Program-made: the position numbers and the translations under genes
NCBI RefSeq assembly: GCF_963678975.1
Contig: NC_089278.1
Span: 15,481,959-15,545,958, forward strand
Origin: Dysidea avara
Taxonomy: Eukaryota; Porifera; Demospongiae; Dictyoceratida; Dysideidae
Direction of reading: 5' to 3'
DNA: 64,000 bases
Shown here: positions 1,577 through 63,706 of the stretch, in pieces
Position numbering within the stretch: position 1 is the stretch's first letter
Layout of the letters: every line of letters starts with the position of its first letter
The notes under the pieces: model-generated
The model's input: the letters and a program-made list of their open reading frames with translations, nothing else
The model's database searches: none
Told to the model about the DNA's origin: nothing

Positions 1577-4500
1577 ATGGCGAACGAGGCCGCCTACCTA
1601 AAGGCTTTCTACGACAATTATGAGGTGATCGTTAAAGGATTATCAGTAGACAACCTTTATCCCAAGTTGATGAGCAAGGGATTGTTGAGAGGGAAATTGT
1701 CGCAAGAGGTACGCGCCTGCAAGACGGACAATGATAAGGCGCAACTTTTACTGGACTCCATGAAAAATGGACTAGAAATAGGTGTCATCCAGGTCTTTGA
1801 AGATTTCTTGGTTGCTCTGAAGGAGTACGCTGAGGAAAATGATGATCAGATTGTAAAAAAATTAGAGACAGACGCGAGAAAATCCATTTCAGATGCGATT
1901 TCCTCAGGGTGGGCAGCAGCAGAAGCGGCGAAGCATAAAGCACCAAGTGGCCAGCTGCCAGGTGAGTAGATCCATTCTGGTAGGGTAGAAAATGCACGGT
2001 AGACCTAATTCCAATTGTGTGGAGTATAAACCCACAATCAAGGGTCTCGTATATATACTGAGCTGAGATATAGTATGCATAACCTGGAATGCATCTAATT
2101 GATATTGATTGATTTGTAAGGCCAACCTAATTAAGTTATGTACCTATCAATAGTTATGAGGCAATACAGGAGATCCTATAGACCTTATTCATTTAGAGCA
2201 GTAAGCGCCCTCTGATGTCACGCGAAGCCATACAAGGCACTCTATTTGCCATGGTGATGGTCTTTCGGACGCCATTTTGAGTTCTAAAACTGGGCGAGCA
2301 CAACGGTTGCTATCATGTTACCATAGTTATGGTACTGCAAATGGCGAATTTGGCGGAGAATTGTGATGTTACTATGGTTTTGGTATTGCAAATGGCGAAT
2401 ATTGGCGGACAACTCCTTCGCAACGGGTTATAAGCGCTATGAAATTAATTCAGTGAATAAGCTCTATATAGAGAAAGGTGACTTGCTTAAGACAGACTTC
2501 TAGATTCTTGCACAGAAATGTCCCTTTTCTTGCAAGAATCTTACACGCCATTTCTTCCTGGGATTAGACAAATTCTAATGTCTAATTCCCCAGTACTGGG
2601 GCTAAGAAGCTTGTCAAATCCCATTAATAATAATTTGTGCCTTATCAAACTACCATTGTCAAAAGCTCCAGGGGTGAGGCAATTTAAACATAGATGTCAG
2701 TTCTCTAGTTGGTATATGGGAATGGAGGACTTGGCATTTATAGGTCCGGTGTATAGATTATATGCACTGCCGAAAACATTATATGATATTTTAACATGTT
2801 TTGTTACGTTTTAATACGTCACGACGGTGAACAACTGCAATAAACATATGTAGAAAATAGACCACTTACCAGTACTTCCAAATCGATAGATTCCTCTACC
2901 TGTATAGAATAATAGCTGGAAAGAAGAGCCGACTCCGTAGTGTTAGTGGTGAGTATTAGCTCGAGCCACATTTGCTACCCGTATGTGGTTTGCAATAGTC
3001 GTCTGTCAAAAATGCTTGGTCACGCCGCTAATCACTGAAAATTAATTATGTTTCGTTGAATAAATAGACCACGCATATATTAAAAATGATGCAGGCAGGT
3101 GATTATAATTGTTATGGCTGAAAAATCTTGACTAAAACAATTACCTACTAATACAACAACAATGTGAAGAGTTGCTACAACTTGTACCACTCCAATTGAG
3201 AGTGTATATTCCTATCCTCTGCTTGTTCTAAATAAAATGCTCTAAATCACAGCAACAGCAAACTGGCTTTTTAAAAGTTAACTAAAAGCCTTGCCAAGCA
3301 GTTCTATGATGATATAACAATAGTCAATCTCCCCTCAGGCTACAGTGTTGTTAGCGTTGTACACACTTATTGTTCCTGTGATAGGATTGGATCATTTTAA
3401 TATTTTCAACAATCACGCACAGCAGCAAGTACAACAGTTCTTTAAAACTCAAAAGCCGATTACACACATGTCATACATTCCACACCTACTCATTGTCACA
3501 ATCAATTACATATAATCATATTACATAATAACTATATAGTCTGTTACGAGTGGCCTTTAGCGTAAACAACAAAAGTTGGACAGCAAATTGGCAATTTGGA
3601 GGGTACAATGGTTTAATTTACCATGTTGCCGATATTGAGGAACGTGCATTAGCTATAATTGCGAATAACAGTTGGTGAATTTTATTTCTCCTCTTACAGT
3701 TCCAAATGAGGCATAAAAGGTAATAAGACTTCACTATGACTGTTCTATTAGAGTATTTGACTGCTTCAATAGTCCAATAGAATATCCGCAGGTAGTGAGT
3801 GTAGTATACTAGCACATTATAAACTAGCCAAGAGCCAACATTTGCAAGATGGGATTTGCCCCCAATGCTACATGCTGGATTTGCCATTGCAATGGAATGA
3901 AAAGTGATGCAGGTAAAAATAATCTTGGCAGCATTAAAAGATTCCTCAGTTACTCTTGTAAACTATGCAAAAGTGTTGTCTATTGGTAATTGGTTATTCT
4001 TGGAGCTTTATATTTCACTTGTTGTAATTGATTCATGACCCATATACACTCATGGGCCCACACACACTGGGTACTACACAACAGACCCCAGTTATTTAAA
4101 TGATGACTATAATAGAGCAGTAATCTTGAACTTTTAAGGTGTGTGCACTACTTCACATTTTTGTTTTGCATCATGTTCACTGTCATTTTGCTCTACCATC
4201 TCATCAGTGTATAGGAGTCCGTATGTGTAACTTTAAATGTGAATGCCTTAAACTATGCTGTCCATCTCATAAGTAGTGGCCACCATCCAGTCTAGCCTAG
4301 CTGGCTCAAATGCTGGGACTCACTAAATTGTTCATAGGAAATAAATGCCTGGGACTCTATCAGGCCTTCATCTAGGAAATGTGTGTGTGCACGTGGGAGG
4401 GGGGGTTAGTATAAGCATTTCTATGCATGCCATGCTATGCCCACTAGACTGCTTCTGGTGCATTCTCAGGTACCTGAAAATTTGACATGCTACTCCAAAA

Positions 4501-6321: not shown

Positions 6322-18710
<12,389 letters not shown>

Positions 18711-18885
18711 AACGGGCGGGTACTTCCCAAGGGAGTTTCTGCTGTAGTCACGGTGTAGGCGCGTCACTAATGGCGCTTATTGACTGTTAAATAAATAGTA
18801 TGCGCTTCTTATTTGAACTACTATGGCGGACCACTAATGATTTATTTAGGCTGAGTATTAAGGATAGATTACAAGAGAAGTAGAT
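18711..18885. promoter_or_regulatory. Shared bidirectional promoter of IKK and epsin
   Basis: Only 175 bp separate the start codons of the two divergent genes. The word TATGGCGGAC occurs at 18822-18831 on the plus strand and inverted at 18702-18711, where it covers the IKK start codon; ATGGCGG is the core of YY1-type sites in animals. On the plus strand this word starts a four-codon upstream ORF (18823-18837) before the epsin ATG. No TATA box is evident. Shared regulation is inferred from the spacing alone. Confidence 0.75.
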
Positions 18886-21800
18886 ATGACTACGTTTAGA
18901 CGACAAGTGTAAGTTCCTTTTAGTGATGATAATAAAGCGCGACGTATATCAGACACGTTGTCGCACATCAATCGCGCACACACTTGTACCACACACACCG
19001 AGTGTGGTGTGCCTGTTTTGTCAGATTATTGCCACCCACATGTTTCGGTAAGACGAGCAGTACATAGAGTATGACTTATTAATAACGGAGGGCATTGGTT
19101 ACACCTTAATGTAGTCGCTAATTCTTAACATAGTGTGGTTGATGTAGCCCTTATATAGGCAGTATGGTACTGCGTGTATTTGATGCTGTAAGGAGAGCTA
19201 CCTTAATGGATGAGGTGTTAATTATGATGTGTTCATCGGATGATTTCCTAACTAGCTCATTTCCTGTTTGTGTCATTTCCTGTAGAAAGAACATAGTGTA
19301 CAATTTCAGTGAAGCTGAGGTCAAAGTTCGTGAGGCTACCTCCAACGATGTCTGGGGACCTTCAGCAGTTGTGATGAGGGAAATTGCTGAATATACTTTT
19401 AATGTGTAAGTGTGTGTAGTGTACATGTGTCTGACTGACCTACACACATTTGAGCATTGAGTGCTTGTCTATTGAAAACAATTAAATTAAATGGTTCTAG
19501 TCATCATGTAGAAAGCATTTTATGTTTTCAGTTCTTTAAAGCCACAAAGCTCTTGGGCGGACTCTTATTAATTAAATTTTTAGGAGGAGAAATTATGTAC
19601 TGTACCAGCTAAACATTCACCCAGGCATCTTTGTATAGTGAGACTTGTTTTTCATCTGGTCAAGTTGACTCTTATCTGTATGTGTGACCCAGTCTGGGAA
19701 AACTGGTCTTGTTGCCTATTTTAAAGTATCGAGAAATGCCAGTTTTAAGTATTCAGTGTGTTGTAGCTCACCAATGGTTGAAGTTATGCATACCAAATTT
19801 TCACGTTTTATACCAATTCCTTACCTTTCAGCATCCACTATACAGGTAGCCAGCAGCTACTATATGTTTCCCACCATTTTAGATAGTTGACTGTATCAGG
19901 TGAGCTGCAAAAGGGGTGGGAAACATCGGCCTGGAGGAGGGTCAGAGGCTGTTTAAAAATCTTAAAGAGGATGGTGTATGAATTAGGCTAAGTTTTGGGC
20001 CATCCAGGTATCAAAACTGGCTAAAATGAAAGGACTTTTACGGTCTGTTTATACTACAGGTCGCTCTGGACGAGATCGCTTCAGTTCAATCCAGATCGAT
20101 TTTTAGCCCCGTTTATGCTACGAAGACCAAGCCCGCTCCAATCACCAAAAAAAAACTTAAACCCACAATCATAATTTCCATCGAAGTAGAGATTGTTGAT
20201 GGAGTTAAAGGATTTGTGTGCTCTGTTGTTCATAAGGTTAGTAGGCATGATAATGTTTTCAGCTTTGGCAACAACCTCTCAATTTTGTGGAGTTGGTTAA
20301 CTATTCATTCGCACGCGTACCTGTTTGTTTCAGAGTCCTTTTGTTGTTCTCCTTTTGTTGTTCTTGAGGCTGTCCTTCCTTATCATCCCCTAAATACTTC
20401 ACTGTTGTTTCATTTTGTCATTACAGTCACCATTTGAGCTTTAGTTCTCCGTATCCTTATTCCGTTTATTGTAGCCAAATCGAACTGCAGGTTCGCAACT
20501 GTTTATACTGGGTGAGTAGAGCGAACTAGATCAAACCAGACCCACATCCTTAGCAGGTCCATTTCAGAGCGGTTCGACACGGTTCGGTTCGATATGGTAC
20601 ATGTTTACACTGACTTGGAACACAGGTCTTTATTCAGCACCACGGCACTGTACAGCCACATACAGCCATCCCCAGGCTGGCCAGAGCTCCATTAGGGTCC
20701 AGGTCGTTCGTACAGATTGCCACTGTGCTTGCAGCAAAAGCAAACCACTCAAGTCTAGCTGATTTTGTTAATGAAATTTGATAGTTTATTCATGTAGCTT
20801 TGTATTCTTGATGAAAATCAAATCTGCTGTCATGGGTAATAAGACTGGTTTTCCCAGACCCAGTCACATATACTGTATGGCAGGAAAGCTTAGTGGGAGA
20901 AAACTTTGATGAATTGAATTTTCCACCATAGGATTTTGATGAAAAAAAGTTTGTCAGTAGCTAATACAGAATTCTATTGGACAAGCAATTTTGGCAGTTA
21001 GTTTGGCGAAACGCACACATAAATGTACGTATCTCATTTTTAATTCTGATTGGCTACACAGAGAGGCATACACACATGTGATGGGCATGATATGGAAACG
21101 ACTGAACGATCATGGCAAGAACTGGCGTCATGTTTACAAGGTGTTTATACACTGTTAACAACTGACTGTTATGCACACTTACCTTAGTCACTAGTGGTAG
21201 TGGATTATCTCGTGAAGAATGGTAGTGAACGGGTGGCCCAACAGTGCCGGGACAATATCTTCTCAATTCAGACACTTAAAGATTTTCAGTTCATCGACAA
21301 GGATGGCAAGGACCAAGGAGTTAATGGTAGTAGCCATGGCAATAGTGTTGCCATAGTGATAGTATGTGTTATTGCAGTAAGAGAGAAAGCCAAAGAGTTA
21401 GCAGCCCTAGTAAAGGATAAGGATCGTGTGAAGGAGGAGAGAGCACGAGCTAGAAGGGTTAGTTAGGACCTAGTCTTGTTACCAAGCTCTTTTTTTTTGT
21501 GTGGGAGTGGTAAAAGAACCTGTCTGCTAGCAAGAGTTCATATGAACTCCTGCAGCTAGATAACTCTTAGTAACACCCTTCTATCCTGACTGGAATTTAA
21601 TCCCCAATGTTTTTGATTGGCTTTGGCAGAAATTTGACAATGCCAACTGTCAAAAGTTACCAAATGATATCTCTTGTCCACCCAACACAAAAACTGACTG
21701 GTAGTTAGTAGCTAACATGTATGTAACTCCATCCCAATAGTCCAGGGATCACCTTGGTGATAATCCTCTACAAGGGATTAGTCATGATAGTAATGATGGA

Positions 21801-24800
21801 AGGTGAGAAGGTCATGTGATCCTTGTATGATGTCGTTATATAATTATCTTTTATAGTCCACCATCATCGTCACCGACGTGAGTGTATTTATGTGATTTGA
21901 TTGGCTATATTGTTGTGCAGTAGTAGATCGGCAACAGCAGAAGGTGGGCCTACTACGCAGAACATCAATCAAGCTCGTCCATCCAATCAGACAGAAGAAG
22001 ACATACAACTGCAGCTGGCACTTCAGATGTCAAAAGAACATCAAGACGAGCTGGACAGATTAAGGTATGGGGTAGTCTTGTTCCTTTTCTCCCTGAAGGA
22101 CTACAAGTGCTCAAGCTCCTTTGATTTGGTCTAAATCCTATAATATCTGTGTGAGTGTAATCAAAAATAATATACACCCATATATGGGGTATTGTACTTG
22201 TGAACTCTGACATTATTGACAGTGTGGCTTGATGTGCTTCGCTAAGTTGAATGTTTGTTATTTAGTTACTCTCAATGCTTAATAAATTATGAATGAAGAT
22301 TTCATACTTATGAAAAAAAATGAAGATCTATTTTACATGATCCGCACATTGGGTGATCTGTGTAAGGTCCAAATTTTGCAGAACAGCTTCCAGCATAATT
22401 TTCTGCAATAAAATTTCTATACAAGTGAAGCTTCAATTATCAAATTTTACATTAAGTTTGAACCTTTCACACATATAGGAGTCTTCCTGGATTTATTCCT
22501 TTTTTACAGAATGCATTAAATTTGTTATTTGTTGATTAGTGTTTAATGGCTATACAAGAGGTGACAATTATAAGAGACTTTTTAGTAGCTTGCTATCGTA
22601 TCATTATTATTATGAAACTCCCTCATCATCAATAAATGCACACAATACAGTTTACACATTTCTTGGACTTTATCCACAATGATGTCACGAGCACAAGATG
22701 GCCGTGTTATTTGGGGGACTAATGTACAGGCACCTATGGAGAAATTTTTTTGATCCATCATATTTCACTCATGAAGCAAGATACGGACCAGTAGCCAACA
22801 GGTATGGGTTAGGCCTAGTATGGGTATAACATGACAAAAACCATTGCAAACAAGCGTTATCTCAAAATTTTCCAGCATGCAATACAAATAGTTTATTGTG
22901 TTGTCTTGTAACCATACCTGTTACTTAGAGCTCGATATCTTCCTGGCTGGAGAGAGGTCACAGAACCATAAGTTCCACCACTAACCGAGACAAGGACAGT
23001 TGGGCATTTGCTTCCCCAGTAAACACCATGTACCCATTGATGTTACAGCTGGGTGGGCTGCTTCCCCAGATGACACTGGCTACCAGGTCAGCTGGGTAGA
23101 CTGGAGCAATGTGAGTAGAGTTTCTTGCTCCTCCATAGGCACCTGTACATTGGTCCCCTAAATAATGCAGCCATCTTGTGCTCGTGACGTCATTGTGGAT
23201 AAAGTCCATAAGGGGAAACTAATCAATGAGCCTTATCCAAAATTACGTCACAAACATAAAAATGGCCGCTGTAGTGTGGGGATGTTCATAAAATTGTATG
23301 GGCGACTATGGGAAGAAAAGTTTTGAATGGCAATATCTCAGCCAAGAAGGAAGATATTGAACTCTAACTAGCAGGTATGGCTACAAGATGTTACAATAAG
23401 TACATAAAAGCGATTTTCAGTTGATTTTCAAAACAACGCTAGGTTAGTATTCTTTCAGCTAATTTATAACCATACCTGCTGGTTAGAGCTCGATATCTTC
23501 CTTCTTGGCTGAGATATTGCCATTCAAAATTTTTCTTCCCATAGTCACCCATACAAATTTTACGAACATCCCCACACTACAGCAGCCATTTTTATGTCTG
23601 TGACGTAATTTCGGATAAAGCCCATAAACATCATCCCTGAGGGGGGCATCATTTAGATAGTCACACTGTGAATCATGTGATACAATGATCATGTGATCCA
23701 CACAGGCAAGAGGAGGAGGATAGTCTTCGGCTAGCTATTGAACTGAGCAAGACTGAGGATGATAATCAGGACGATAATAACACTGCTGAATCATCTCAAC
23801 CCCAATCAACAGGTCTACTAGGTGTGTTCTATTTAGTGCTCATCATCTTTTAACAATTCCAGTAGATTTCTCAGACCCATGGGGAGACAAGACAGAGCAA
23901 CAACAACCACCAATATATGCTACTGTTGTTAAGAAGAAGTTTGCTGCTACTGATCCCTGGGGAGACCCCCTATTTGATAGTAGTGAACCACAGGTCACTG
24001 AGCCTGTTGCCCCCACTACTGATCCCTGGGGGTCGTCTGTCACTGCACCTAGTTTGCAACAGCAGCCTATAGCAGAGTGAGTGATTTATGATTGGAGTCC
24101 ATTTGTGCCCAGTTATTGTCACATTACATAATTCATTGTTATCAAGGTCACCAGTAACTGGTGTCCTTATAATGAACTTTGTGTATACTACTACTAGTTG
24201 TTTATCAACCGGATCATGGAGCTTACAGGGGTTGATGGGATTATCCTAAGCATTTTGTATGGTTATCACCCAGTAACAACTAAGTTATCACCTTGTAACA
24301 GAGCCACTCAGTCTAGTTTGTGACATCATATCAACTGTGAATGACCAATGGATCAAATATGGGAATATTAATACAAAAACACCAGTACAGCACTTATACC
24401 TGCTAGTAGGGCTGGGAGATAATTTAGATAAAAAGATTATCTAGATACCTAAATCACATATCGTAAATTAGATAACAAATTTGTTTATCAAGATAATAGT
24501 AAATCTCTGTAATCTGTTGTAAATCAACCACAGTCAGATGGGAAAGGTGTCAAACTAGTTGGGGAAGTGGTAAAATTTCTGGCTTAACAACCACTACTTG
24601 TCAAAAAATGTGGCTCTATGATGTCACATATTATCTAGATAATATCAATTATCGAGCTGTCACTTATTGAGGTATAGGTTTTACCATTGTCGCACAGTCC
24701 TACCTGCTAGATCTTAATAAAGTGGTTACTTCTTCACTATACTATTGCAATGGATTAAACGAATGTCAAGAAAAAGTCTGCATATATTTTTAGTTGCTCC

Positions 24801-40046: not shown

Positions 40047-43000
40047 TCAGTAACCAGCATACATTTGTTCAGCGTTCTTTTTCTTCCGTGATGGTATTAA
40101 CGGCATGATCTCCATCTTGGGTAGCTTCCGACGACTGTGTAGTAGCAACTGTGTAACCATGGTGATCACCAATGATATTAGCTCACCATATGTTCCAGTA
40201 ACACGTGACCCCAACAATCAATACCAGGATTACCACAACTACGATGTTGACAAACAAATAACATCAACATCAGTTACTGTCAACAACTTACATAATGACA
40301 CTAAAGCAATAGTGATGTAGAAGGTTGCTTCAGGTACACAATGCTGTCAATTAAATATTCCAATTAATGAACACTATGCAATATAATCAAGCAAAGGAGG
40401 GTGGTCACTATGACAGCAAACACACATGGTTAAGGCTTGCTCATTAGCAGCTTGGAATGCCAACATAATTATTGTGTTTAGTACCTGTTTGTGAGATGTA
40501 AATGAGGGGATAGATATTATACAAAATTCACTAAGTAATAATATTATTATTTGGTATGTCAATTAGTTCAAGACCAAACTCCTCTAATTGAGGAGGATTT
40601 TAATGGTTCGGCACTAAATGTGTCAACTCAACTATGTTGCTGGAAGGAGAAACAGATATTTTGGTGAACTTTCATCTTTCACTGGACTATATAACAAATA
40701 AGCACATTAAGCTCAATGGTCACTCTATCCAGAAATCATTTGTAAAGATCCCCAACCATACCCAGTTACTCACCGTTCGTTCATCATTGCTCTTAAACAG
40801 ACTGCTACATTCCTGGGGCTGAGAACTACCCACAGGACAATATGAACTAGAATGCTCAGGACAAGATTTGGGAGGTGAGAAGCGATCCTGCATTAATCAA
40901 TTAGAGTCATATAATTACCACAGCAGTAGCAACACTTACAGGACAGTAGTATCCAGCAGGACATATTATACATGACTGCTGGCCAGTATCTGGTTGGTAA
41001 TATCCACTGGAACATGCTACACACTTGGTCTGATCCCCATTACGGTAATGTCCTACAATAAATAAATATACAGTGGTTCAACACATCACTCAGTACTATC
41101 CCATGTATAACCAACACATTCTAATCCTGTTAACAGGTGCTGGAATTGGTCTCAGAAAACAATAAATGTTCGTTTGTTGTGGACATTGAATAGTTGAAAT
41201 ATTTTTGTGCACTATATAATAGCATACTGACCTTTACTACAATTGACACAGTTAGAAGCAAAAGCATCTGCCTCTTTTCCGAGAGGACATGGTTCACACT
41301 CCGAACAACCCACCTCCCTGACCAGATCACATGAGCTAGTGATGTTATTATGAAGGTGTGACTTACATGCATACTTTGGGTGGCTTACAATCCAGACACT
41401 TAACGGCACCTTTTCCTGGGGAGTATGTCCCTGTATGACATCATAATTAATGATGTGATGATATGCCAGTAGTACTCACCTAGTCTGCACTCAACACAGT
41501 CAGTTTGATTAGAAATAGGGACTTCCCCAGGATCACATACATCACAATCAGTACAACCATACTCACTATAACAAAATATTATCATGACCAAATTAGGAAG
41601 CTACAACACTACACAAAATACAATGTAACAAGTACAAGGAAAAATTTTCTACACCTGTAGTGGAGACTTCAGTTATACAAACCTGACAATAATATAGCCA
41701 ATATAGCCAATATAGCCATTATACTGAAGTACCACTGAGTAAGTAGCAGATGTAGATGACCTCCCTTGTTGTTGTTGTTGTTGTTTTTTTTTTTGTTTTT
41801 TATTTCTGTAATCCCTAGAATTTTTTTTCATATACAATGTTTTTTTATTACTGGTGAACCATTACCCCACAGAAAATGGTGGCAGATAAGTTATAAAAAC
41901 TAATTGAGTGACCGAATGCATGTCCTGACTATCAGTACCTCCTTGTTAAAATAACAATTTAAACAGTTGACCAGTGTGCAAGTTGTTAGCAGCATCGCAA
42001 ATATCAACAGACGGCTTTATTCACTCTAGCAAGGTGTTGATGAAGTATTGAATGCCATACAAGGGTGTCAAATACTGTATGTGCAGATCGAGACCTTTCA
42101 ACCTCACATATCTCAAAAAAAGGAAGCAGTAGGAAGCAGTAGTGTTCTAGAATGCCTGTTAAAGGGTTACGCCAACCCACCATGGTGCCTGGTGGGATGA
42201 GTGTTGAATAAGGTGATAACTCTCTCCATTTAGGAAGAGAGGCTGGACCTTCTGTAATAACTCTCTCCATTTAGGAAGAGAGGCTGGACCTTCTCTCTTG
42301 GAAATGTTGAACCCCTACTATCTCAAGAGGCCCTAATGCAGAGGCTTCTTCTGAAGACAAATGATATGCTCAACTACAAATCAGGGGCTTCCCTAAAGAC
42401 AGCACCGCTCTACTTTACTCAAAACTCTTATTTATAGTAACATATAATTTAAATTTTTGACTTTGATGTTGGTAGCAAATTGACAGTTTTACCACTCTAC
42501 TTTTGTTTGCTAGGAAAAGTTCTGCATATAATCCCAAATAGCATGCAATTACTTTGTGATCTAAGCCATTTGAAAATTAAAGCAAAGACCACACTCATGG
42601 AGCAAACTGATCCATATAACACTTAAGGCAGGCCCATTCTCAGCTCACAAGGGTCTGATAAGGGCCTATACTACTGATGTGTTTCAAACTGTTTAGCAGT
42701 AGCAACAGCGGCGACGACAACGGCAGCAGTAGTACCACCACCACCACCACCAAGTTGATCAGCTACAGGGATAGACCCTCTGAAGCATGCAGTATACGGA
42801 TAGACAATGTGCTCACTCTCCAATGTAGCCAGGTAAAACAAACACAACAGAAAATAACTGCATTATGTATTCACACAAATACACATCTGGACATACATAC
42901 CTACACTGGTGCCCAGCCTCGCATGTAGCACACACTGTTGCTCCTTGGGTGCTACTATGGCTACCAGGCTCACACTCGTCACACTCAGCCTGACCAGTGT

Positions 43001-44734
43001 CACCTTGGTAACTGCCTGGATCACACAATTTACAGGAAGAACACTGTTCAACACTAAACAAAGCCATACAATTACCACATACTAGTCTTATTGTATGGGT
43101 TACCTGCAGTGGCTACCTTTATCACAAGGTATACATGATGTCTGGTTGGTATGAGGTTGATGGGAGCCAGGTAAACAATTCTTACATATCTGAGAACCAT
43201 TTCCGGGAGCATATGTACCTGTAAGGTAAAGAGGGGAGTGAATTGCATGGTGAAACAACAGAGGAGCAAATAATTGTGTTTAACTTTAAAAATAGGAAGA
43301 AAAAATATTATTGCATTGAGCCATTTTCACAACCTTAAATAAGCCAATTTTCACAGCTTTTATCATGGTATTCATATGTATACAGAGTTGCTTTTATTGT
43401 TATAGCAAAACTAGCTATGCATCATTTATTATCAATTTGCAATAATTGTTAAATACTGTACAACAGTTATATTAGAATACTATGATTGTAAGCTTGCCCA
43501 AACATTTGGACATCGTAACTTTAATTTCCATTGCCTTAATGAAGGGCCGTACCTGAGACATGTAGGAAAATTCAACTAAACAAATTGGCAGGTAATTGTG
43601 CTGCAATGTGAGGACTGATCTTTCAACCTCCCCGTTGAAATGAATCAAATAGAGAAGTGCAGTAGATTTAAGAAAACTAAAAATTAAAAACACAAAAAGA
43701 TAAATTTTGAAGGGACACATTTCGGGATGGCTGAACTGAAAATTTGGTATGGAAGGTCTCCCCACTCAAGGGATTTAGCAATGAAAAAGGTCTGTTTCTG
43801 TCAAGAAATGTTCACAAGTTATGGATGTGTGAAAATTGTGCCTCTTTGGCTTGGCTGTCAAGATCCTTGGTCACACAACACACTATGACCTGTGACCATA
43901 CTACATTCTGTTTAAAACACACACATGCGCACGCACGCGTGCGCACACACACACACACTCCCCAGGGGTCTGACACTTTGAGAAATCTCACACACTCATG
44001 GTAGAAATCACATCAGAAATCAAGTAAAGATGTCAGCAAGTCAGTAGAAAATTAACACGAAAATCAGAAATCATGGTGCAAATCAGGAAGTCCCATATGC
44101 AAATTGTCAGACCCCTCACACACTCCCCCAACAACCACTTAGTCACACACAATACATGTCAGAACTTACCATTACTGCAAGCTGTACACAAGATTGCACC
44201 TTTGTCTTTACTATAACTTCCTGGATGACACAGTGTACATGACTCCTGTCCCAGTTTACTGAAACCATAACTATGACAGCTGCTGTGTTCTAACATATTC
44301 ACTCACTCATTATAGCTCCCAGGGTCACACTGTGTACAATTGTTCTTCCTAGGAACATTGTTATAATACCCCTTGGGGCATGCTGAACAGTCGTCTGGTG
44401 TTTCACATTTACCAGCTTCGATACATTTACTACATTTTGGTGTATCTATGGTACAACACGTAGTGAAACAACAGTATTTCTATATAATGCTCACCTTGGT
44501 TAGCATAAGTCCCAGCGGGGCATTCTACGCAGGCTACCAAAGACACAAGCATATTAATAATTACAATGCTGTTAATTCTTCACTATTACACACGCTGTCA
44601 CATGACTACGTACAACGTATTAACCTGGTCAACGTACCGTGATAGACAGGCAGTGACAATAATATGAGGTGTAGAATGATGACAATCCAGCCCCACGGTG
44701 GCCAGCCTGCTACTGTATTGATTAGTAACCGCAT
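40047..44734 (-). CDS. Type I membrane protein with ephrin-receptor/TNFR-like cysteine-rich repeats
   Basis: Fourteen phase-compatible exons (first 44638-44734, last 40047-40134) give 434 residues. Residues 1-32 form a signal peptide with a hydrophobic core (WIVIILHLILLSLPVY). About 340 residues follow with repeated C-x-x-C-x-P-G-(S/T)-Y units such as CTQCDPGSYN, CTLCHPGSYSKD, CKLCDPGSYQGD, CDECEPGSHSS and CIICPAGYYCP, the pattern of ephrin-receptor-like (GCC2/GCC3) modules, which resemble TNFR cysteine-rich domains. One transmembrane helix (FYITIALVSLFVVILVLIVG) is split by two introns and followed by the stop-transfer CRRK. The cytoplasmic tail has about 28 residues, ends NAEQMYAGY, and lacks a Death domain. 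Known for such modules: extracellular protein binding. The ligand and signalling route are unknown. The upstream region has CACGTG and a TATA-like ATATATAC. Confidence 0.87.
42216..42294. repeat. Two-copy tandem repeat, 41-bp unit
   Basis: ATAACTCTCTCCATTTAGGA and the 18 bases after it occur twice at a spacing of 41 bp, in an intron of the cysteine-rich receptor gene. Confidence 0.85.
43917..43962. repeat. Alternating purine-pyrimidine (CA/CG) tract
   Basis: CACACA runs flank a GCGCACGCACGCGTGCGCAC core in an intron of the receptor gene. Such tracts can adopt left-handed DNA and are unstable in length. Confidence 0.8.
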
Positions 44735-48400: not shown

Positions 48401-48403
48401 ACA

Positions 48404-49850: not shown

Positions 49851-50640
49851 TGCAGAAATCAAAAAGATTGTTGTGCACAGGTGTGATCATAATGAATGTT
49901 CAGGTTAGTACAAAACTCATCTAAGGTAGGGGAGTGAATTACAAAGGGGGGGAGTGTGTTCCAGAGTCTGATTGTAGAAGGGAAAAAGGAAAATTTATAA
50001 GAATCGATCATAGTGTCAAGCTGTTTATAATAACCTTCCCTTGATGGACGATGATTAGGTATTAGATCATTTGTGGGTATACTTAGATTGCCATTAATTA
50101 TCTTATACATTGTAGTTATCTTAGACTTGTTTCTTCTTTCTTCGAGGGTAGGTAAATTTAATGATGACATCATTCTTGTTACACTACTAAATCCAGAAAA
50201 ATCATTGTAGCAAAATCTAGCTGCTCTCCTTTGGATGGACTCAAGTTGGTTTATGTTGGTGTGGGTGTGGGGGGCCCAGACAGAGGATGCATATTCAACA
50301 ATGGGACGGACCATCATCTTATAACAATTGCTCTTAACAGAAACAGGGCATTGGTGAAGGTTACGGCGCAAGAATCCATTAACCTGGTTTGCTTTGCTAG
50401 TGACTCTTTGAATGTGTTCATTCCATGATAGTTTCTGGTCAATGGTGACCCCGAGATATTTCATGTGAGGAACCTCAGAGATGATAGAATTCTCCAGATG
50501 ATAGCTATGAATGATGGGATTTCTTTTATTGGTAATTCTCAAGTGTTCGCATTTCTTAATGTTAAATTCCATCATCCAAGTACGAAATACAATTAGCATC
50601 TGTGATGTAACTTTACAACTACAACTTTTCAAGTAGGTAT
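49817..50640 (-). mobile_element. 5'-truncated LINE copy B with open 257-codon frame
   Basis: One uninterrupted frame covers the C-terminal third of a non-LTR reverse transcriptase: MKYLGVTIDQKLSWNEHI, MVRPIVEYASSVWAPHT, QLESIQRRAARFCYN, and RLWNTLPPFVI near the end. The same 3' end as copy A is followed by an ATT/TTA-rich run at 49817-49850. It is less decayed than copy A. Because it lacks the catalytic core, it cannot work alone. Confidence 0.85.
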
Positions 50641-50710
50641 GGCCTTAGATCCACTGCATGATTACCTAGAGAGAGAACCATCATTGATGATACATACAAT
50701 ACATTATTAG

Positions 50711-51236
50711 CAGTGTTGGGAGTAACGCGCTACTTATGTAACGCGTTACGTAATATTATTACTTTTGTGGTAACAAAGTAATATAACGAAATACGCTATA
50801 AAAACAGGTAATATAATGCAAGCTACTTTACTTACAAATGTAACGCGTTACCTAAGTAATATAGTTACTGTAACGAATCTAATATTACGTAATATTATTA
50901 CTACAAGTAACGAAGTTACTAATCTCGTTAGTTATCCTCTGAGTAATGCCTAGCCACAGCGAAGTAACGAGGCCTACTGAATGAAGCTTATTCACCAGCT
51001 TCTTACTTATAACCAAAATTTGCATATTGTCCAACAGCGCAATCATGTCACGTGATAAGGTGGTAGTTTCACACGTGACAGTTTAAGGCTGTGGACACAA
51101 AGTAATATAATATGTAATATTATTACAGTTACTTTATTTTATGGGTAATATGTAACTGTAACTAAATAGTTCAGTTGCAAGTAATATGTAATATTATGTA
51201 ACTAGTTACTTTTACAAAGTAACTTGCCCAACACTG
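50711..51236. repeat. hAT-like element, copy 1, with 8-bp duplication ATTATTAG
   Basis: The ends CAGTGTTGGGAGTAACGCG and GTAACTTGCCCAACACTG form the terminal repeat. ATTATTAG lies exactly on both sides (50703-50710 and 51237-51244). The inside is built of GTAATATTATTAC and ACGCGTTACGTAA words and includes ATGTCACGTGATAAGGTGG. No transposase is seen. Copy 2 lies at 55800-56291. Confidence 0.93.
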
Positions 51237-51456: not shown

Positions 51457-51504
<48 letters not shown>

Positions 51505-51522
51505 AGATATATATATATAGTA
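51457..51522. repeat. (TA)n / (GATATA)n microsatellite
   Basis: A long TA run grades into AGATAT repeats, about 270 bp downstream of hAT copy 1 and 100 bp before the ZCCHC24 promoter. Confidence 0.9.
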
Positions 51523-51539
51523 ACTGAAATGTGCCACGA

Positions 51540-51818: not shown

Positions 51819-52010
51819 GTAAGCAGTTTTGAGTTATCTGTAGATTGTAGTTGTATTTGTTTTGAAATTGGGCATCGACCGGTACTGCAGCAGTGTGCTT
51901 GTTAGCTATAAATGTCAACTAGTTAACTAGCTGTATAGTAGACAAAGAAGGGTAGCTATATATATGACTCCGCTAATACCTATAGTTTACCATTTTTGTT
52001 GCAGGTGAAC

Positions 52011-53211
<1,201 letters not shown>

Positions 53212-55020: not shown

Positions 55021-58000
55021 TTACTTTGGCACTGCCCATGTTACAATGATTACATATGAAACACACTGCTTACAGTGGTGAGTAACCATTCCACCTTGAG
55101 GCCCAGAGCTGATCCCCGAGTCATACGTCACTTTTGAAGATTCACCACCTGTGCCATGACATGTACACAATACACAGGTACTATACCACTAACCACTCTT
55201 GTTGCTAGGTTGTTGCGTGTTGGTAGGGAGGGGTAGACGGCCTGTGTCCCGGTCAATAACAGTGACACAATCATTACGAGACATTTCAATTAGACTGGAT
55301 CGTAGCTTGCTAATAGTGCCACCACTGGCCTGTATAGAGGTGCAATTACAATTTACTACAATTTACTACAATAACAAAGGAAAAATATGTATGTCAAACA
55401 TTTCGGCAGACAAAAATTTCATTATGTAGTCATGATCAGGTTGATTCCCCTAAATAGGTTGCAATTATGAGTTCTTGGAAAAGGATCATAGTTAAAATTT
55501 TCTGCTTATGTGGAAGCAGACAGACAGACAGACAGACATAGTTTACAAAGTAATATAAGTGTACCACACGTGAATTCCAGGAAACTACATGGCTGGCTAG
55601 GGAAGTGCACCTGTTTGTTTGACAAGCAAGCTTCATTGAAAATTTTAAAAAGAAAAACAATACATCATTGTACCTAGGCAGTTTTTGGACAGAAAAAAAA
55701 ATGCTGCAATTACAATTCATTTGCTTGAACATACACAACTACATGCAATCACAAGATACACCACTGGGGGGGAGGCGATAGTTACAAACAATATACAACC
55801 AGTGTTGGGAGTAACGCATTACGTAATATTATTACTTTTGTGGTAACTAAGCAATATAACGAAATATGCTATAAAAACTCAAGTTAGTTTACTTTACTTA
55901 CAAATGTAACGCGTTACCTAAGTAATATAGTTACTGTAATGAGTATGTAATATTATTACTACAAATAGCGAAGTTACTAATCTCGTTAGTTATCCTCTGA
56001 GCAATGCCTAGCCACAATGAAGTAACGAAGCTTACTGGATGAAGCTTATTCACCAGCTTCTTACATATAACCAAGATTTGCATATTGTCCAACAACGCAA
56101 TCATGTCACGTGATAAGGTGGTAGTTTCACACGTGACAGCTTAAGGCTGTGGACACAAAGTAATATAATATGTAATATTATTATAGTTACTTTATTTTAT
56201 GAGTAATATGTAACTGTAACTAAATAGTTCAGTTGCAAGTAATATATAATATGTAATTAGTTACTTTTACAAAGTAACTTTCCCAACACTGTATACAACA
56301 ATGCACTAATTACAGCTCACTCACCTCATAGTAATTCAGCAGCTCCCTGGTGGGGCTGCTCATGGTCTTGAAGGCATCCAGTAATGGCACCAAATCTAAC
56401 AGAGCACACAACTTCTTCCAATCTTTTCCTTCATTGGACACGTCCAATAACAACGACAACTTCATTCTTGTCATGTAGTCTAGGTCGTCCATGTCACCTG
56501 TAATTACATCATGTAATGAGGAACATCCCCTAATGATTAACTAGTACTCTGTGTGTGTGTATGTGTGAGTGTGTATGTGTGTGTGTGCATGTTTATAACC
56601 ATTTGGTTGTGCTACCTTACAGCAAAGTGGTTGCATCAGCTTGCACACATTTATAATACAAACTGTTCTAGGTTTGTCTTGGTATGTGTGTGTACGTGTG
56701 TAGTGTAGTGCACAGGTAGGTACACATATATAACAAAATGCAAAAAAATTTTCCCTGCACAAAGTGTGTGCATCTAATGTGGTACAGCCATGGACTAATA
56801 ACAAACATTACACAGTAACATAGTCCACGATGAAGAACTAACTTTCAATCTTGATAATGGATGATGCGTTCACTTCATCACCGGATGAATTAGATGAGTG
56901 AGTTAATGAGATACCTTCCAATTGATGACGTATTTCTTGATCTGTAAGAATCCATACAACTGAGTACTGTAAACAATATAGTGGTTACCATGGAAATCTT
57001 CACTGGTAATATTCTCCAGAACACGTACTGCCTGTAAATACAGCAGTAACCATAGAAAAATATCACAATTGATAGCCCACCTCAGTATGCTGCCTTATCC
57101 TAGCGAGGTCTAATGGAGTCTCCTCTTCAAGGTTCTTTATTGTGCAATCTGCTCCCCCACTCACTAGTAAGTTGATCAGTTGAGCATTACCAAGACTAGC
57201 GGCTAGGTGTAGGGGGGTGTTGCCAGCAAAGTCTGCTTGATCTGGGTCACTACCCGCCTGTCATAACACAGCTGTATCCTTGACAACATCAATAACACCA
57301 TAGTGACTCACATCTACTAACAGATAACCACACAATGCAATGTCACCCTTCTCTACAGCATAGTGAAGTGGTGTTCGTCCAGACTTGCCATCCTATTTAG
57401 TATAGTAATAGTCTACTCTACTACTTTGATAACCAAGTACCTGTATACTCAAGTTAGCTCCAGCACGGTGTAATAATTTCAGACAATCAATACTGCCACA
57501 GAGTGCAGCCAAGTGTGCCGGTGTGTGTCCTGTGTATGTATTGTCATTGGTTTACAATGGACTCTAATAAGAGCTCACCATTAACATTCATTATCAACAT
57601 GTCAGAATAGACAGTAACTGGAGCAAGATGTGTCTTGCGATTGAGCAGACACTTTATAGCCTCAGGGTAGCCCATGTGAGCTGCCAGATGCATGGCAGTG
57701 TTGCCATTACGGTCACACACTAGAGGGTTTGCTCCTGCCACTAACAGGTGCTCCATGACAGCATGTTGTCTGGTGATAACCGACAAGTGAAGTGGAGACT
57801 GAAGGAATAACATAATGTAATGGTTGCGCATATGGTGACATGTGGTCACCTGTTTGAAGTTGTTCAGGCAGTCAACAATTGGGGTCTCTGATGCTGGGAG
57901 GGTGGGTAGTATGTCCAGTAACGTCACAACAACATCTTCTTGGTGGTTGATAATGGCAACATGAATCACCCTAGTAACATACACACACTAGGTCACTATT

Positions 58001-61000
58001 TAGACTTTTGCACAAACTATTGGTGGTCACTAATAAGAGTTCATGTTAGTCACTATTAAGAGTAAAACACTTACGTATCTCCATCACTGTTTTGTACAGC
58101 TGTAAGGCTTCTCTGTGCAGCAAGCAAGTATCGTACATCCTTGGTCCTAGCCCAGTGCATAAGAGCATCAAACATTCTCTCACACAACTGATAAGCTGCC
58201 ATTTGTCGTTGTTGTAGTGACTGGAGGACTGCATCATCTGTTACAATGGTGGTAATATTGAGTACTTAATACAATGCCCACTAACAATGACCATACCTTC
58301 TTGACTTGACCCCTCCATGAAACCTGACTCTTCTTCTTTATCTTGATGTCCTGGTAACACCATGACAATCACTAACATTGCCATGACAACCACTGTACTC
58401 ACCTTTCAGTTGAGTTGCCTTAGAAATACCTGGACAATGAATTGTACTGTTATATTCCAACAGTACTTCACCAACTCACCCTTTCCTCCTGCAGTGGGGT
58501 CACTTTCCTTCTTAACTGAAGGGGGTCCTGCTCCACGATGTCTGAAACCTCCCATTCCCATCATTGGTGGGTAGGATTGGGGTGGGGGATAAGGGTAATT
58601 CCCTTGTTGTGGTTCAAACATGCTAGCCACAGGTGGCAGTGGTTGGTGGGTGGGGTCTGCAGCAAATGGGTTGTTCCCTCCCATGTGATGATAACGTTGT
58701 TGTTGATCACCATAGCTACCACTGCTGCTACCTGCTCCTCCACCAAAACTGTGCATGTTGCCATGGCCACCACCTGCACCAGTAGCTCCACCCATTCCAA
58801 AGCTCCACCCGCCAGATGCACTATCTCCAAAGGCACTGAAGAATCCTCCTCCTCCACCACCACCACCGCCCCTACCTGGGGGATTCCCTCCAGACCCATC
58901 AAAGAACTGGTTAAAATGGTTGATCTTTTTGCGCCGTTTCTGACCAATCTTTTCTTCGTCTGTAAAAAACAACAACAACAACAATGTGACTACCACAATA
59001 AAAGCCCTCAGGACAAATAAACTATGAATGTAGTGAGGCTCCAAATATTAACATCAACATTATATACTCCTGTAATATATATTTTTACAAGTTTACTGTA
59101 AATGTAGAATAACAATTATATCCAGGTTGTGTAATAGTCCTGGCATGAAGGTTTGTACCAACCCCAAAGGAGTTTTGGTTATCAAACTTCCAGCCCCAAC
59201 ACCTCACTACTAATACCAAGTATTCTTAATTGATTAGAATGCACCAGCAAGGTTTCTATGCTATTTAGAGATCTGACGATAATGTGGGCGAGGGCTACCC
59301 ACAAATTAATCTTCTTCTTGTCTCTACTGACTGGTTGAACCAGTGAAGTTTTGAACATGTCTCAACATAATGTCTCTGACCTCTTGACTCCCTGGCCTTG
59401 ACACAGATCATATTAACTAACCAGTCAACATCTACCAAGATGACAGTGATAAATATGACAACTCCACAGACAATGTTGTTGAGTCTTACACTTACCCCCT
59501 GCCATCACCATCAGTCACAACGTAAGTTTTCATTTGAGTGAGTCGTACGGGTATATGGAAGTACTACAAACTTGACAGGTCCTCTCCTAGTTCTTTTTTT
59601 TTTTCTAGTCTGGTCTGTTACAGTTTTGATCATGACATAGCAGTCCAAAGCACCAAACTTGGTACAGTCACTCTTTATAATAACATACTAAGCGATTTCA
59701 GAAGAAGTCCCCACCATGAAGTCACCTACCACTCCTTAATCATTTTGTCACCCACAGAATTAAAAACCCATGATAATCAATCTTCCCAAGTATACAAGGA
59801 GTACTACTACTATTTGTAATGGAGTAATCCATGATCTTTTGTGGGTAGTTTACTGACAAAGTTATTATTAGATAAATTGCACCCAAATTATAGCTCTTTT
59901 GTACAAAAGGCTGTCTTTTAAACTCATTACAGATGTTATTAAACAGTACAGTAGCAGAGCCGGAGGAGGGAAAATTGAGTTGGTCAGGCCATTGACTATA
60001 ATGTTGAAATTGCTACTACATGTCAATGAGAGAGGAGCTGTTGCACAGTGTGCGAAGTGCGAAGCACAAGCATTCTAGGGGGGTCTGGGGGCATGCATGC
60101 CCCCACAGGAAATTTTTGAAACTTAGACACTCAGATATACAATTTTAATGAATTTCACTGCTAGCTAGCTATATAAATATGCTCAAGCCTATCTGTTGTT
60201 CTTCAGACTTTCTATACTATGTATAATTGTAGACCTGACATACAGGGGACACAGCATGAAACTTGCTGTATGGTTCATTTAGTTATAGCTAGAAATTAGA
60301 AGTTCAAGGGGGGTCTGGGGGTGCAACCCCCAGGAGCTGCAGAATTTTTGCAATTTAAAGGCTTGAAAATGCCTTAAAATTTAAAATTGATGCTAATTTT
60401 TAAAGTAAAACTAGCTAGCAATTTGCAACTTTCCCCCCAAATTTCACAGGGAACCCATGCAGCATGGCCCCCTTTAGCTGGGATATAATTACTATACAGT
60501 GAATTCACACAGCTACAATAAAAGGCTACACAGCTACAAAAATACAGTATACTACTATACTGGTTTGTATGAAGTGAACGGATCATCACGTAAATATACT
60601 GGTAGACAGTCACGAGACCAATCAGTATTCGAAAATGGTGCGATGTGGGTGAGACTGAGAGTTTGCTCAGTATCTCGACAGGACGAGTGGGTAGTTGAAG
60701 AGGAGTGATTTCTACTCAACATCTCATCCAGATGGCCACCATGTAATGTATGGGTGTACAGCTTCTTGCCGCGGAATGAGTCATCTGGTTTGTCACTGCC
60801 AGCCCTTCGCCCAGTAAAAGAAGCCAAGAGAGACAAGCCAAGGAATGCTAATGATTATTTTATGAAGATTGAATTGTGATATAAGTGTGCTGGTTTAGAA
60901 TCAAAGAAGGCACCTGCCTTACACGTGATAAATGCCAACTGTCAGCATAAGTGATACTGTACGTAGAACCCACAATCATTTCTGTACAGAACGATACGAA

Positions 61001-63706
61001 TGCTATGCTGTACTGTAAGGTAATTGGAAGTACTATACGTGTAGTTCTGTGCTTTAGTTAGGCTGAGAAACTAGGTAACTACTCGTGTCATGCATTTTCA
61101 ATAACATCTGTAAAATGTACGTAGCTACATGTAGATGTGATCGTCCAAAGGTTGCATGAGAGTAATGTAGTTCGAGCTGGTCAGCTAGTTGGTTCAACTC
61201 CAGATTATTGGTCCGGCTCGGGCCTGACCAGCCGGACCGTCTCCTCCGGCCTTGAGTAGTACTGGTCAGTAGGATCCCCCCCCAAATGATGCGCACTGCC
61301 AAAAATACTGTGTTAAAAACATCATACATGACAAAAAAATCACTTGTACAGAATAGTCTTAGTACATCTATCTATTAAAAAACAAGAAAACACTCACAGA
61401 CAGCTGGACACCGAATATTTAAAAAATGCCAAAACCCAAATTTTGGTCTGCCTACTTGCCTCCAAACAAAGCAGTGCATGGCCACCATTTTACACAATAA
61501 CAAACTCACTGGTGGCATCATGTGCCTTTTCTGGTTCCAATGGATATGTGCCTTCTGTGGTTTACCTTTCCTTTTATCTTCAATTACATGGTTGTGTTCT
61601 TCTTCATGCAAGGAAACCATACAAGACATATATTTTCTGAATCAACACTTTTCTTAGAGGAGTGTATTTAGAAGCCGCAAAACTATTTGAAGTGTTTTAG
61701 TGACTGTGCAGTAAGTGGAGTTATAAAACAATCACATGGACCGACACACATGCTAAACAATCAATACATGCTGCCTTGCTCTTAACGACCAGAACATGCC
61801 ATGACCACACTCCTCTGCGATCTAGCTGCAGTTTTGCTGTAGAAAACTAGACATGGCAAACCACGCCCCTTAATATATTTCATAACTTGCTCAAGACAAT
61901 CAAGGAGATTGAGATACTCTAATAAAGCAGTCACAGCCATACGTGTGTGTAACATACTAGAGCAAAGTAAACAAACTAGTACAATTAAAAATGAAAAGAA
62001 GTAGGGTTCTACTTCTAGTGATAAAAAGTAGTGAAACAAGATATACGAATGAAGGTTGCTATTACAACATAGCTACACTGTATGTGGGAAATCCCTACTT
62101 TGGCATTGAACAGGTAGTAGTAACATGCCAATGCAGGGATTTTCCAGCATACTGCAGCCATGTTGCAGTAGCTACCATCATTCATATTTTGTTCCACTAC
62201 ATTTCATTGCTGGAACCCTACATGTTGCATGATCACATAGTAGCATACAGAATGTCCTTCATTTCAGAAGTCTGATACACCATTAAACTGTGAGGTAGCC
62301 TGCAAAAGCATGAAGGGCACTTGAGGGATTCAAGGACAACTTAGCGGTGAAGTACCTCCTCCCTGACAAGCTCACAAAATATGCTGTCAGTGGAGTCCCA
62401 CAAAGATGTAGTTAGTAGTATCTCTACCTACCTCAAGATGGAGTTGCAGGTGGGCTGCTTGAATGCAAAGAGTTGAAGGTGAATATTAGCCCCTTCAGGG
62501 TAATCCCCAAAAGGGTAGGCCCAAATGTGGGTGGATACAGAGACAAAAGTGTAAATGACAAGATCCCCAAGGTATGGTGCAGCCTTTCAGTATAAGACGT
62601 AGTGGAGCAGATACCAGAGTAAAGCCCCAGCATCCTAAATGGATATCCATCAAGTCTACCGTAAGTTCCCCTCCCCACAACATGACACTAACACACTTCA
62701 TCGTGCACACATTACCCCCCCTCCCCATGATATAACACACTACTTACCAAATTCTTGTGGTAGGTACGTGAACTGGCGAGGGTCACTCATTTCCCGATCA
62801 GACGGACGCCTCAAGGCCACATTAACCACAACTTGCCGCTCAATAACTCTGTTGAAGTATGCTGGAGTGCGAAACACTATTGCATATTGGTGGTGTACAT
62901 CATGAGGTCCAAACTCTGCCTTAGCCTCCCACCGGTCGTAATTGTTTACTGTAGTATGCAGTGATGAAGCCATACAACTCATACAAGAGTGAGGCTCACC
63001 TGATCCTTCTACTTTCATTGGCACATCTTCATAAAACACCACCTCAACATCATCTGGATAATAATAACATTGTCATAAGTGACATGTAATGTATTATATG
63101 ACAAATTTTGATCAAGACTGTAGTGCGGCCCACGAAGTCAGCACACAACACCGTAAGTATTACAGTGTAATAATGACATCATGGTTCAAGCTAGCCACTC
63201 ACTTTTCTGAACTTTATCACACAATAGAAATACTTCATCTCCTCCATTAACACTACCACTGTGCCTATCCAGTCTGCTGATCTTTAGTGTGGCTGCTGAA
63301 GGTGCCTCTGTAGTCATGATGGTGTATGCTACACTGTATTCTAACAACTTGACTACTCACTGCTATCGTACACCTTCTGAGAGAAGACAGGCTCCAGTGG
63401 AATAGTAAAACGACCATTTTCATCTGGCAAGAAGGCCTGAAAGCATAATCTGACAACACTAAGATTCATATTCTTGCCGATACGATCTGCTTCACTTCGG
63501 ATCATTTCCTGGTCATCTAACAACACCAAACAACAATCCTTTTATACATTCTGTAGTGATCAATACCTTCAGTAAGTTGTGGCTGCTCCCCAGTTACTGC
63601 TGACTCGCTGCGTTTTTCTTGCAGTAAGAGTTGTTGAGTGAATCGATCAACTAAAACATCTACAACCTTCTTACGTGTCACGTGTAGTATACCAAGATTT
63701 GGAAAC
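55021..63706 (-). CDS. NFKB: NF-kappa-B (p105/p100 class), 5' end outside the window
   Basis: Nineteen phase-compatible exons give 877 residues; the N-terminal part of the Rel homology domain lies beyond base 64000. Seen in order: Rel domain from [14 protein letters not shown] (63706) through [56 protein letters not shown] to QFTYLPQEF (62748); then one exon (58480-58959) with the nuclear localisation signal KRRKK and a long Gly-rich region; then six to seven ankyrin repeats (58237-57081; for example [19 protein letters not shown]); a Death domain (56497-55194; [12 protein letters not shown], then [15 protein letters not shown]); and a last exon with DSGISS. Known role: the Rel part binds DNA as a dimer, the ankyrin part holds it in the cytosol, and IKK triggers processing or decay. 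The domain order matches vertebrate p105. The final exon depends on a 45-bp intron (55149-55193); without it the protein stops at 55189. Confidence 0.96.
55800..56291. repeat. hAT-like element, copy 2, with 8-bp duplication TATACAAC
   Basis: It has the same ends and inside as copy 1 at 50711, with scattered differences. TATACAAC flanks both sides (55792-55799 and 56292-56299). It sits in the NF-kappa-B intron between the two Death-domain exons, 33 bp from the splice donor of the upstream exon. Confidence 0.93.
56551..56590. repeat. (GT)n microsatellite
   Basis: A TG-rich run lies in an NF-kappa-B intron. Confidence 0.85.
60555..60836 (-). other. Orphan open frame inside the NF-kappa-B intron
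   Basis: On the minus strand about 93 codons read [20 protein letters not shown], then [14 protein letters not shown], then [14 protein letters not shown] and [14 protein letters not shown], ending at a stop. The composition is protein-like and CpG-richer than the intron around it. No ATG opens the frame, so it would be the last exon of something spliced, perhaps a nested gene or an alternative NF-kappa-B exon. No family is recognised. Confidence 0.35.
61262..61470. repeat. Interspersed repeat shared with 39430-39740
   Basis: This is the second copy of the repeat described at 39430, in the same orientation, and it ends in a TTTTGGTCTGCCT word. Confidence 0.5.
62047..62184. repeat. Fold-back element in the NF-kappa-B intron
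   Basis: GAATGAAGGTTGCTATTACA at the left pairs with its near reverse complement at the right, with arms of about 60 bp sharing AAATCCCT and TTGGCAT words. The loop is short. It is an old, imperfect copy. Confidence 0.65.

What the first reader, a model, noticed from the sequence alone, without database searches (positions are those of the whole stretch)
1577..63706. Cluster of NF-kappa-B pathway genes within 64 kb
IKK, NF-kappa-B, a CARD plus Death-domain adaptor, a stand-alone CARD protein and a cysteine-rich surface receptor lie in one window with only epsin and ZCCHC24 as other clear genes. The domain calls come from the sequence. A functional cluster is inference: these genes share no single orientation, and chance linkage is possible. 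If conserved, it would be a physical grouping of kinase, substrate and adaptor-type genes at the base of animals.
Basis: partly seen in the sequence, partly recalled or inferred. Interest (0 to 1): 0.85.

Follow-up and report, generated by a model that had tools for sequence, protein, structure and literature searches.

The report
IKK and NF-kappa-B genes lying nearby
One 64-kb stretch of an animal genome holds both the kinase (IKK) and its target (NF-kappa-B) of a central immune pathway, with two CARD genes and a receptor-like gene nearby; the genes are real, but nothing here shows that being neighbours has a function.

Summary
The gene calls are mostly right; the "functional cluster" is not supported. 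I identified seven animal genes. IKK (minus, ATG 18710) is of the canonical alpha/beta type: 272 bits to IKK-beta, 103 to TBK1. NF-kappa-B (minus, from beyond 64000 to about 55.0 kb) is p100/p105-like, with RHD, glycine-rich region, ankyrins, Death domain and a C-terminal DSGISS motif. Epsin and ZCCHC24 are clear. One CARD gene passes Pfam's cut-off; the small CARD protein does not, but its predicted fold matches Apaf-1 CARD. The cysteine-rich gene has ephrin-receptor-like modules and an in-phase membrane span, so "surface receptor" is reasonable, though not TNF-receptor-like. The "Death" half of the CARD adaptor gets no support from any test made.

IKK and NF-kappa-B are 36 kb and four genes apart. 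The tightest arrangement is IKK head-to-head with epsin, 175 bp between start codons. Chance of IKK within five genes of NF-kappa-B is about 4e-4 if named in advance, but 1-4% for some pathway pair per window. NFKB2 and CHUK share human band 10q24, so a relic of ancient linkage stays possible. No animal genomes were available: conservation, species and co-expression are untested. Most likely: pathway partners acting in trans, incidentally linked.

The parts
1577..5376 (+).
   Evidence: gene finder, Pfam CARD 1.6e-5, splice sites; no Death match
6426..18710 (-). IKK alpha/beta-type kinase, start codon 18710-18708, last exon that I could place ends at 6426; 8416-nt intron 9807-18222
   Evidence: (IKK-beta 272-281 bits), splice sites; activation loop [12 protein letters not shown] aligns with DQGSLCTSFVGT of 4kik
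18711..18885 (.). 175-nt spacer between the IKK and epsin start codons, putative divergent promoter; holds GGGTACTTCCC at 18718 (loose kB pattern, not the strict one)
18886..26317 (+). epsin: exon 1 18886-18908 (MTTFRRQ), exon 2 from 19286, further ENTH exons about 21.1-21.5 kb, C-terminal tail with NPF and DPW motifs to 26317
   Evidence: 1h0a 227 bits
30021..30314 (+). 97-aa CARD-fold protein, single exon
   Evidence: Pfam CARD 0.004, below cut-off; AF2 pLDDT 80.5; Foldseek Apaf-1 CARD TM 0.78
40063..44552 (-). cysteine-rich protein with Ephrin_rec_like modules, membrane span and start of a basic cytoplasmic tail; further exons towards 34 kb are low-scoring and uncertain
40187..40343 (-). 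two exons (40343-40292, 40238-40187) coding the membrane span FYITIALVSLFVVILVLIVGVTCYW; exon 40134-40063 follows with RRK
   Evidence: in-phase join with GT..AG ends, hydropathy 3.2
52005..53211 (+). ZCCHC24 orthologue (exons 52005-52379 and 52927-53211)
   Evidence: Pfam Zn_ribbon_3CxxC_2 3.3e-23, ZCCHC24_C 2.3e-17, zf-CCHC_2 4.4e-10
55021..64000 (-). NF-kappa-B p100/p105-type gene; 5' part beyond the window; first exon seen 63706-63567; glycine-rich exon 58959-58480; ankyrins about 58.0-57.0 kb; Death domain in exons 56497-56325 and 55329-55194
55105..55122 (-). DSGISS, an IKK/beta-TrCP-type phosphodegron-like motif C-terminal to the Death domain
   Evidence: one of 3 matches to DSG-x(1-3)-S in all six frames of the window

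Best explanation
This is a stretch of animal chromosome on which I identified seven protein-coding genes, six of them spliced, among them a canonical IKK and a p100/p105-type NF-kappa-B. The two proteins most likely work together in trans as kinase and substrate: upstream adaptors activate IKK on its activation-loop serines, IKK phosphorylates the C-terminal DSGISS of NF-kappa-B, ubiquitination and the proteasome then remove the ankyrin half, with the glycine-rich region as the stop, and the RHD part enters the nucleus. SHOWN: the domains, the aligned activation-loop serines, the DSGISS motif, the gene order. INFERRED: the signalling steps and any part played by the CARD proteins and the receptor-like protein. 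Physical neighbourhood is most likely incidental to this mechanism. The arrangement here that best predicts shared transcription is the IKK-epsin pair, read outward from a 175-nt spacer.
For: IKK identity; NF-kappa-B architecture; DSGISS at (-)55122; mixed strands and four genes between IKK and NF-kappa-B; 175 nt between IKK and epsin start codons; chance of some pathway pair per 7-gene window 0.8-4%. [quoted passage not shown] serines also PMC8677719, passages).
Against: For a pair named in advance, linkage within five genes has only about a 4e-4 chance. Two CARD genes in the same stretch add to that (P of two or more among five 4e-5 to 2.5e-3 for 25,000 genes and 50-400 such genes), although CARD genes are numerous in some sponges (recalled) and may cluster by duplication. 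NFKB2 (10q24) and CHUK (10q24-q25) share a human band (PMC2267801 Table 1, passage).
Confidence: 0.71

Rival explanations
1. Relic of an ancestral linkage: IKK and NF-kappa-B sat on the same chromosome of the animal ancestor and have stayed linked by slow rearrangement, with no selection on proximity as such.
For: Human NFKB2 10q24 and CHUK 10q24-q25 share a band; the other copies are NFKB1 4q24 and IKBKB 8p11.2 (PMC2267801 Table 1, passage). Chromosomes 4, 5, 8 and 10 form a known vertebrate paralogon, and chromosome-scale linkage groups shared between sponges and bilaterians are known (both recalled).
Against: NFKB1 and IKBKB lie on different chromosomes from each other; the human NFKB2-CHUK distance is about 2 Mb (recalled). 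No invertebrate location was tested. No row listed in 10 paper searches was about this linkage (several lists were cut).
Confidence: 0.2
2. A selected immune gene cluster: kinase, substrate, CARD adaptors and a surface receptor are kept together for co-regulation.
For: Five of the seven genes can be tied to innate immunity if both CARD genes and the cysteine-rich membrane protein are counted. In A. queenslandica NF-kappa-B is among the most connected transcription factors of a co-expressed module in bacteria-exposure data (PMC13372038, passages). Raised from 0.05 to 0.06 because the membrane span was found on re-checking.
Against: Mixed orientation, four genes between kinase and substrate, two unrelated genes (epsin, ZCCHC24) interspersed. 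kB-like sites (16 strict against 3.7 expected) include several inside exons and none of the strict ones lies between the IKK and epsin start codons. In the paper named, the string IKK does not occur.
Confidence: 0.06
3. Assembly artefact: the linkage is produced by a mis-join.
For: Single window, no read data.
Against: No N in 64,000 bases; G+C stays at 37-42% in 4-kb steps. Neither excludes a mis-join between genes.
Confidence: 0.03

Closest known systems
NF-kappa-B p100/p105-type proteins of sponges (Amphimedon queenslandica) and anthozoans
   Same: RHD, glycine-rich region and ankyrins, with C-terminal serines as candidate IKK sites (PMC13042239 section 6); here also a Death domain and DSGISS
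   Different: N-terminal half of the RHD lies outside the window; the published A. queenslandica antibody epitope is not found in the part seen, so same species is not shown
IKK-alpha/beta (PDB 4kik, 5ebz)
   Same: Kinase domain at 265-270 bits as a domain, both activation-loop serines, collinear C-terminal region
   Different: C-terminal half strongly diverged; NEMO-binding segment not located
Human 10q24 NFKB2-CHUK neighbourhood
   Same: NF-kappa-B and IKK genes in one chromosome band
   Different: Megabase distance in human (recalled) against 36 kb here; no other shared neighbour was tested
RAIDD/CRADD-type CARD plus Death adaptors
   Same: N-terminal CARD, small two-exon protein (architecture of RAIDD recalled)
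   Different: Second half not recognised as Death by any test made
Surface proteins with ephrin-receptor-like cysteine modules
   Same: Repeated Ephrin_rec_like modules and a single membrane span
   Different: Cytoplasmic part beyond about 25 residues not resolved; no TNFR module above cut-off

Membership tests
IKK alpha/beta (canonical IKK) | Kinase domain closer to IKK-alpha/beta than to TBK1 | tested here: met
   272 against 103 bits
IKK alpha/beta (canonical IKK) | SxxxS activation loop | tested here: met
   SSMCTS aligned with GSLCTS of 4kik
IKK alpha/beta (canonical IKK) | Ubiquitin-like and scaffold-dimerisation regions | tested here: inconclusive
   collinear alignment to residue 657 of the assembled protein but i-Evalue 0.13; no relevant match when searched alone
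IKK alpha/beta (canonical IKK) | NEMO-binding segment | not tested
   last exons not resolved
NF-kappa-B p100/p105 class | RHD with dimerisation domain, closer to p100/p105 than to Rel | tested here: met
   188.6 bits to p100 (3do7_B) against 157.8 or less for p65/Rel chains
NF-kappa-B p100/p105 class | Ankyrin repeats and Death domain | tested here: met
NF-kappa-B p100/p105 class | RHD N-terminal DNA-recognition loop | not testable with these tools
   beyond base 64000
NF-kappa-B p100/p105 class | C-terminal IKK-type phosphodegron | tested here: met
   DSGISS by motif only; phosphorylation not tested
CARD plus Death adaptor (RAIDD-like) | CARD | tested here: met
   PF00619 1.6e-5
CARD plus Death adaptor (RAIDD-like) | Death domain | tested here: not met
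   no match; low-confidence single-sequence model without Death fold
Stand-alone CARD protein | CARD fold | tested here: met
   fold match to Apaf-1 CARD TM 0.78, but Pfam below cut-off and no Foldseek E under 0.001
TNF-receptor-like surface receptor | TNFR cysteine-rich domains | tested here: not met
   TNFR_c6 E 0.6, below cut-off; Ephrin_rec_like instead
TNF-receptor-like surface receptor | Single membrane span | tested here: met
   in-phase three-exon join, hydropathy 3.2, followed by RRK; no cDNA
Conserved co-regulated gene cluster | Same grouping in related species | not testable with these tools
   no animal genomes available; searches found no relatives in prokaryote and viral contigs
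Conserved co-regulated gene cluster | Co-expression of members | not testable with these tools
   no expression data

The most novel reading that the evidence does not exclude
IKK and NF-kappa-B were linked in the last common ancestor of animals and the linkage persists from this animal (36 kb) to human 10q24 (CHUK and NFKB2), making kinase and substrate an ancient physical pair.
Probability: 0.15. Interest if true: 0.6.

Novelty: new member of a known kind. Interest (0 to 1): 0.33.

Why it matters
If the linkage proved ancient, it would tie the physical history of IKK to that of its substrate. Passages in PMC8677719 say that Capsaspora has NF-kappa-B but no IKK-like gene, so where IKK arose relative to NF-kappa-B is a question that gene order could inform. 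As it stands, the window adds one more gene pair in which the kinase has both loop serines and the substrate has a degron-like motif, which fits an early origin of IKK-driven NF-kappa-B processing, already proposed in print (PMC13042239 section 6).

Tried and rejected
Whole genome of the window: not held. Relatives: RHD in prokaryote genome contigs (72 stretches matched a pattern, none a relative) and viral contigs, IKK in viral contigs: nothing. A repeat-derived 22-mer, tried in the hope of finding host DNA in records of named origin: 0 matches in both collections. Rfam: 0 matches at gathering score. tRNA: none.

Gene finder: the first run was badly over-fitted (two giant chains) and was discarded as a model, though some of its fragments served as leads; the stricter runs were kept and corrected by hand. 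They also list a few short low-scoring models that I did not pursue, so further genes are not excluded. The exon 20060-20236 that searches gave to epsin was rejected: the ENTH continuation [22 protein letters not shown] lies near 21.1 kb. The epsin protein still held that false exon, and the cysteine-rich protein held low-scoring exons. In one search, 31 of 34 listed introns run GT..AG; the other 3 rows (63565, 55197, 8050) had boundaries that I set 1-4 bases off. One search shows GT..AG for the first two once corrected; for the third its row was still off, and the sequence has GT at 8049.

Membrane span of the cysteine-rich gene: I first judged that one search showed none. On re-checking, its highest-scoring stretch (40263-40207) led to an in-phase exon join, so that judgement was withdrawn.

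Death domain in the CARD adaptor: by eye the exon has a Death-like pattern (W-K-x-F-G ... NPGG ... ALLQQYL ... SWQRVIYAL), which is my own reading; no test supported it, so it is left open rather than excluded. Both AlphaFold2 models were made from single sequences, which lowers their weight.

kB-site enrichment (16 strict sites against 3.7 expected from a first-order Markov model, 30 runs) was set aside: several sites fall in exons and the control is crude.

Conserved linkage in print: ten searches (two found no paper). No listed row was about it, but several lists were cut (for example 30 of 164) and I opened only eight papers. The library lacks most subscription journals; Gauthier and Degnan 2008 and Williams et al. 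2020 I did not see.

Full report
WHAT IS THERE. The window has no tRNA, no N and no Rfam match at gathering score. Its genes are split by introns, 18 of the 34 listed being 47-60 nt long; 31 of the 34 have GT..AG ends as typed, and the other three rows had boundaries that I set 1-4 bases off. The animal origin follows from these gene families; that it is a sponge is not tested.

IKK. The kinase domain scores 272 bits to IKK-beta and 267 to IKK-alpha, but 103 to TBK1, so this is the canonical type. Both activation-loop serines align (SSMCTS against GSLCTS). The 660-residue protein that I assembled runs collinearly with 4kik to [13 protein letters not shown]. That second stretch is weak (i-Evalue 0.13), and the region alone found nothing relevant. 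A 51-nt GT..AG intron in the kinase domain, once removed, reads [11 protein letters not shown], a better fit than the version searched. The gene has an 8.4-kb intron.

NF-kappa-B. The first exon in the window starts at 63706, the finding's own end coordinate; the rest of the RHD is outside. The protein has RHD, dimerisation domain, a glycine-rich exon, ankyrins and a Death domain, is nearest to p100, and carries DSGISS after the Death domain. The pattern DSG-x(1-3)-S occurs three times in all six frames of the window, so its place in the tail is unlikely to be accidental, but this is a motif match only.

THE OTHER GENES. Epsin is certain (227 bits to 1h0a), and so is ZCCHC24. The CARD at 1577-1961 passes Pfam's cut-off. 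The 97-aa protein at 30021 is under Pfam's cut-off, but nine of its ten best fold matches are CARD entries, mostly Apaf-1, and the tenth is a designed protein. The cysteine-rich gene has ephrin-receptor-like modules. Downstream of them three exons join in phase into HCVPEATFYITIALVSLFVVILVLIVGVTCYWNICRRKLPKMEIMPLIPSRKKKNAEQ, a membrane span with a basic stop-transfer stretch.

IS THE LINKAGE MORE THAN CHANCE? Between IKK's start (18710) and NF-kappa-B's end (about 55.0 kb) lie 36 kb and four genes. If the pair is named in advance, the chance is 2.5e-4 to 5.6e-4. If any pathway pair would have caught the eye, it is 0.8-4% per seven-gene window. A scan that reads many windows will meet such cases. 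Of interest is that human NFKB2 is listed at 10q24 and CHUK at 10q24-q25, with NFKB1 at 4q24 and IKBKB at 8p11.2 (PMC2267801 Table 1, passage). Chromosomes 4, 8 and 10 belong to one vertebrate paralogon (recalled), which would fit an ancestral chromosome that held both genes. I could not test this further.

WHAT THE ANATOMY SAYS ABOUT REGULATION. The strands are mixed, so no operon-like reading is possible. The closest pair is IKK and epsin: 175 nt lie between their start codons, 18710 (-) and 18886 (+), and the epsin first exon is supported by the ENTH N-terminus aligning from residue 3. A GGGTACTTCCC, a match to the loose kB pattern only, lies in that spacer. With 36 loose sites in the window against 16.6 expected, finding one there is weak evidence of an IKK feedback loop, and I do not claim one.

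LITERATURE. PMC13042239 (section 6 read) and PMC8677719 (passages) state that sponge NF-kappa-B has C-terminal serines usable by IKK; the latter also that Capsaspora has NF-kappa-B without an IKK homologue. PMC13372038 (passages) reports NF-kappa-B among the most connected transcription factors of a module in A. queenslandica juveniles exposed to bacteria; the string IKK does not occur there. PMC6321704 (passages) reports three clustered NF-kappa-B/Rel-type genes in placozoans, a different kind of clustering. Passages of PMC9621439, PMC6429132 and PMC8851819 added nothing on linkage. No listed row of ten searches was about IKK-NF-kappa-B linkage.

VERDICT. A correct and skilled reading of gene content, with one over-call (the adaptor's Death domain), and a cluster interpretation that remains untested and is less likely than incidental or inherited linkage.

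Noticed in passing
18711-18885: IKK and epsin are head-to-head with 175 nt between start codons, a compact putative divergent promoter with a loose kB-like GGGTACTTCCC.
   Followed up: partly
13219-14204 (+), inside the 8.4-kb IKK intron: Broken open frames that look like a BEL/Pao-type retroelement polyprotein (likeness recalled; no Pfam or NCBIfam match above cut-off).
   Followed up: partly
49859-50644 (-): 261-aa open frame that looks like the tail of a LINE-type reverse transcriptase (likeness recalled; no Pfam match at E 1, no NCBIfam match).
   Followed up: partly
50738-51236 and 55811-56291: Two copies, 93-98% alike in four pieces, of a repeat of about 500 nt containing GTAACGCGTTAC, probably a small mobile element.
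   Followed up: partly
30894-31160, 23290-23560: Long inverted repeats (92-93% over 97-98 nt) that could form hairpins.
   Followed up: no
whole window: Strict kB motif GGGRNNYYCC occurs 16 times against 3.7 expected from a first-order Markov model; several lie in exons.
   Followed up: no
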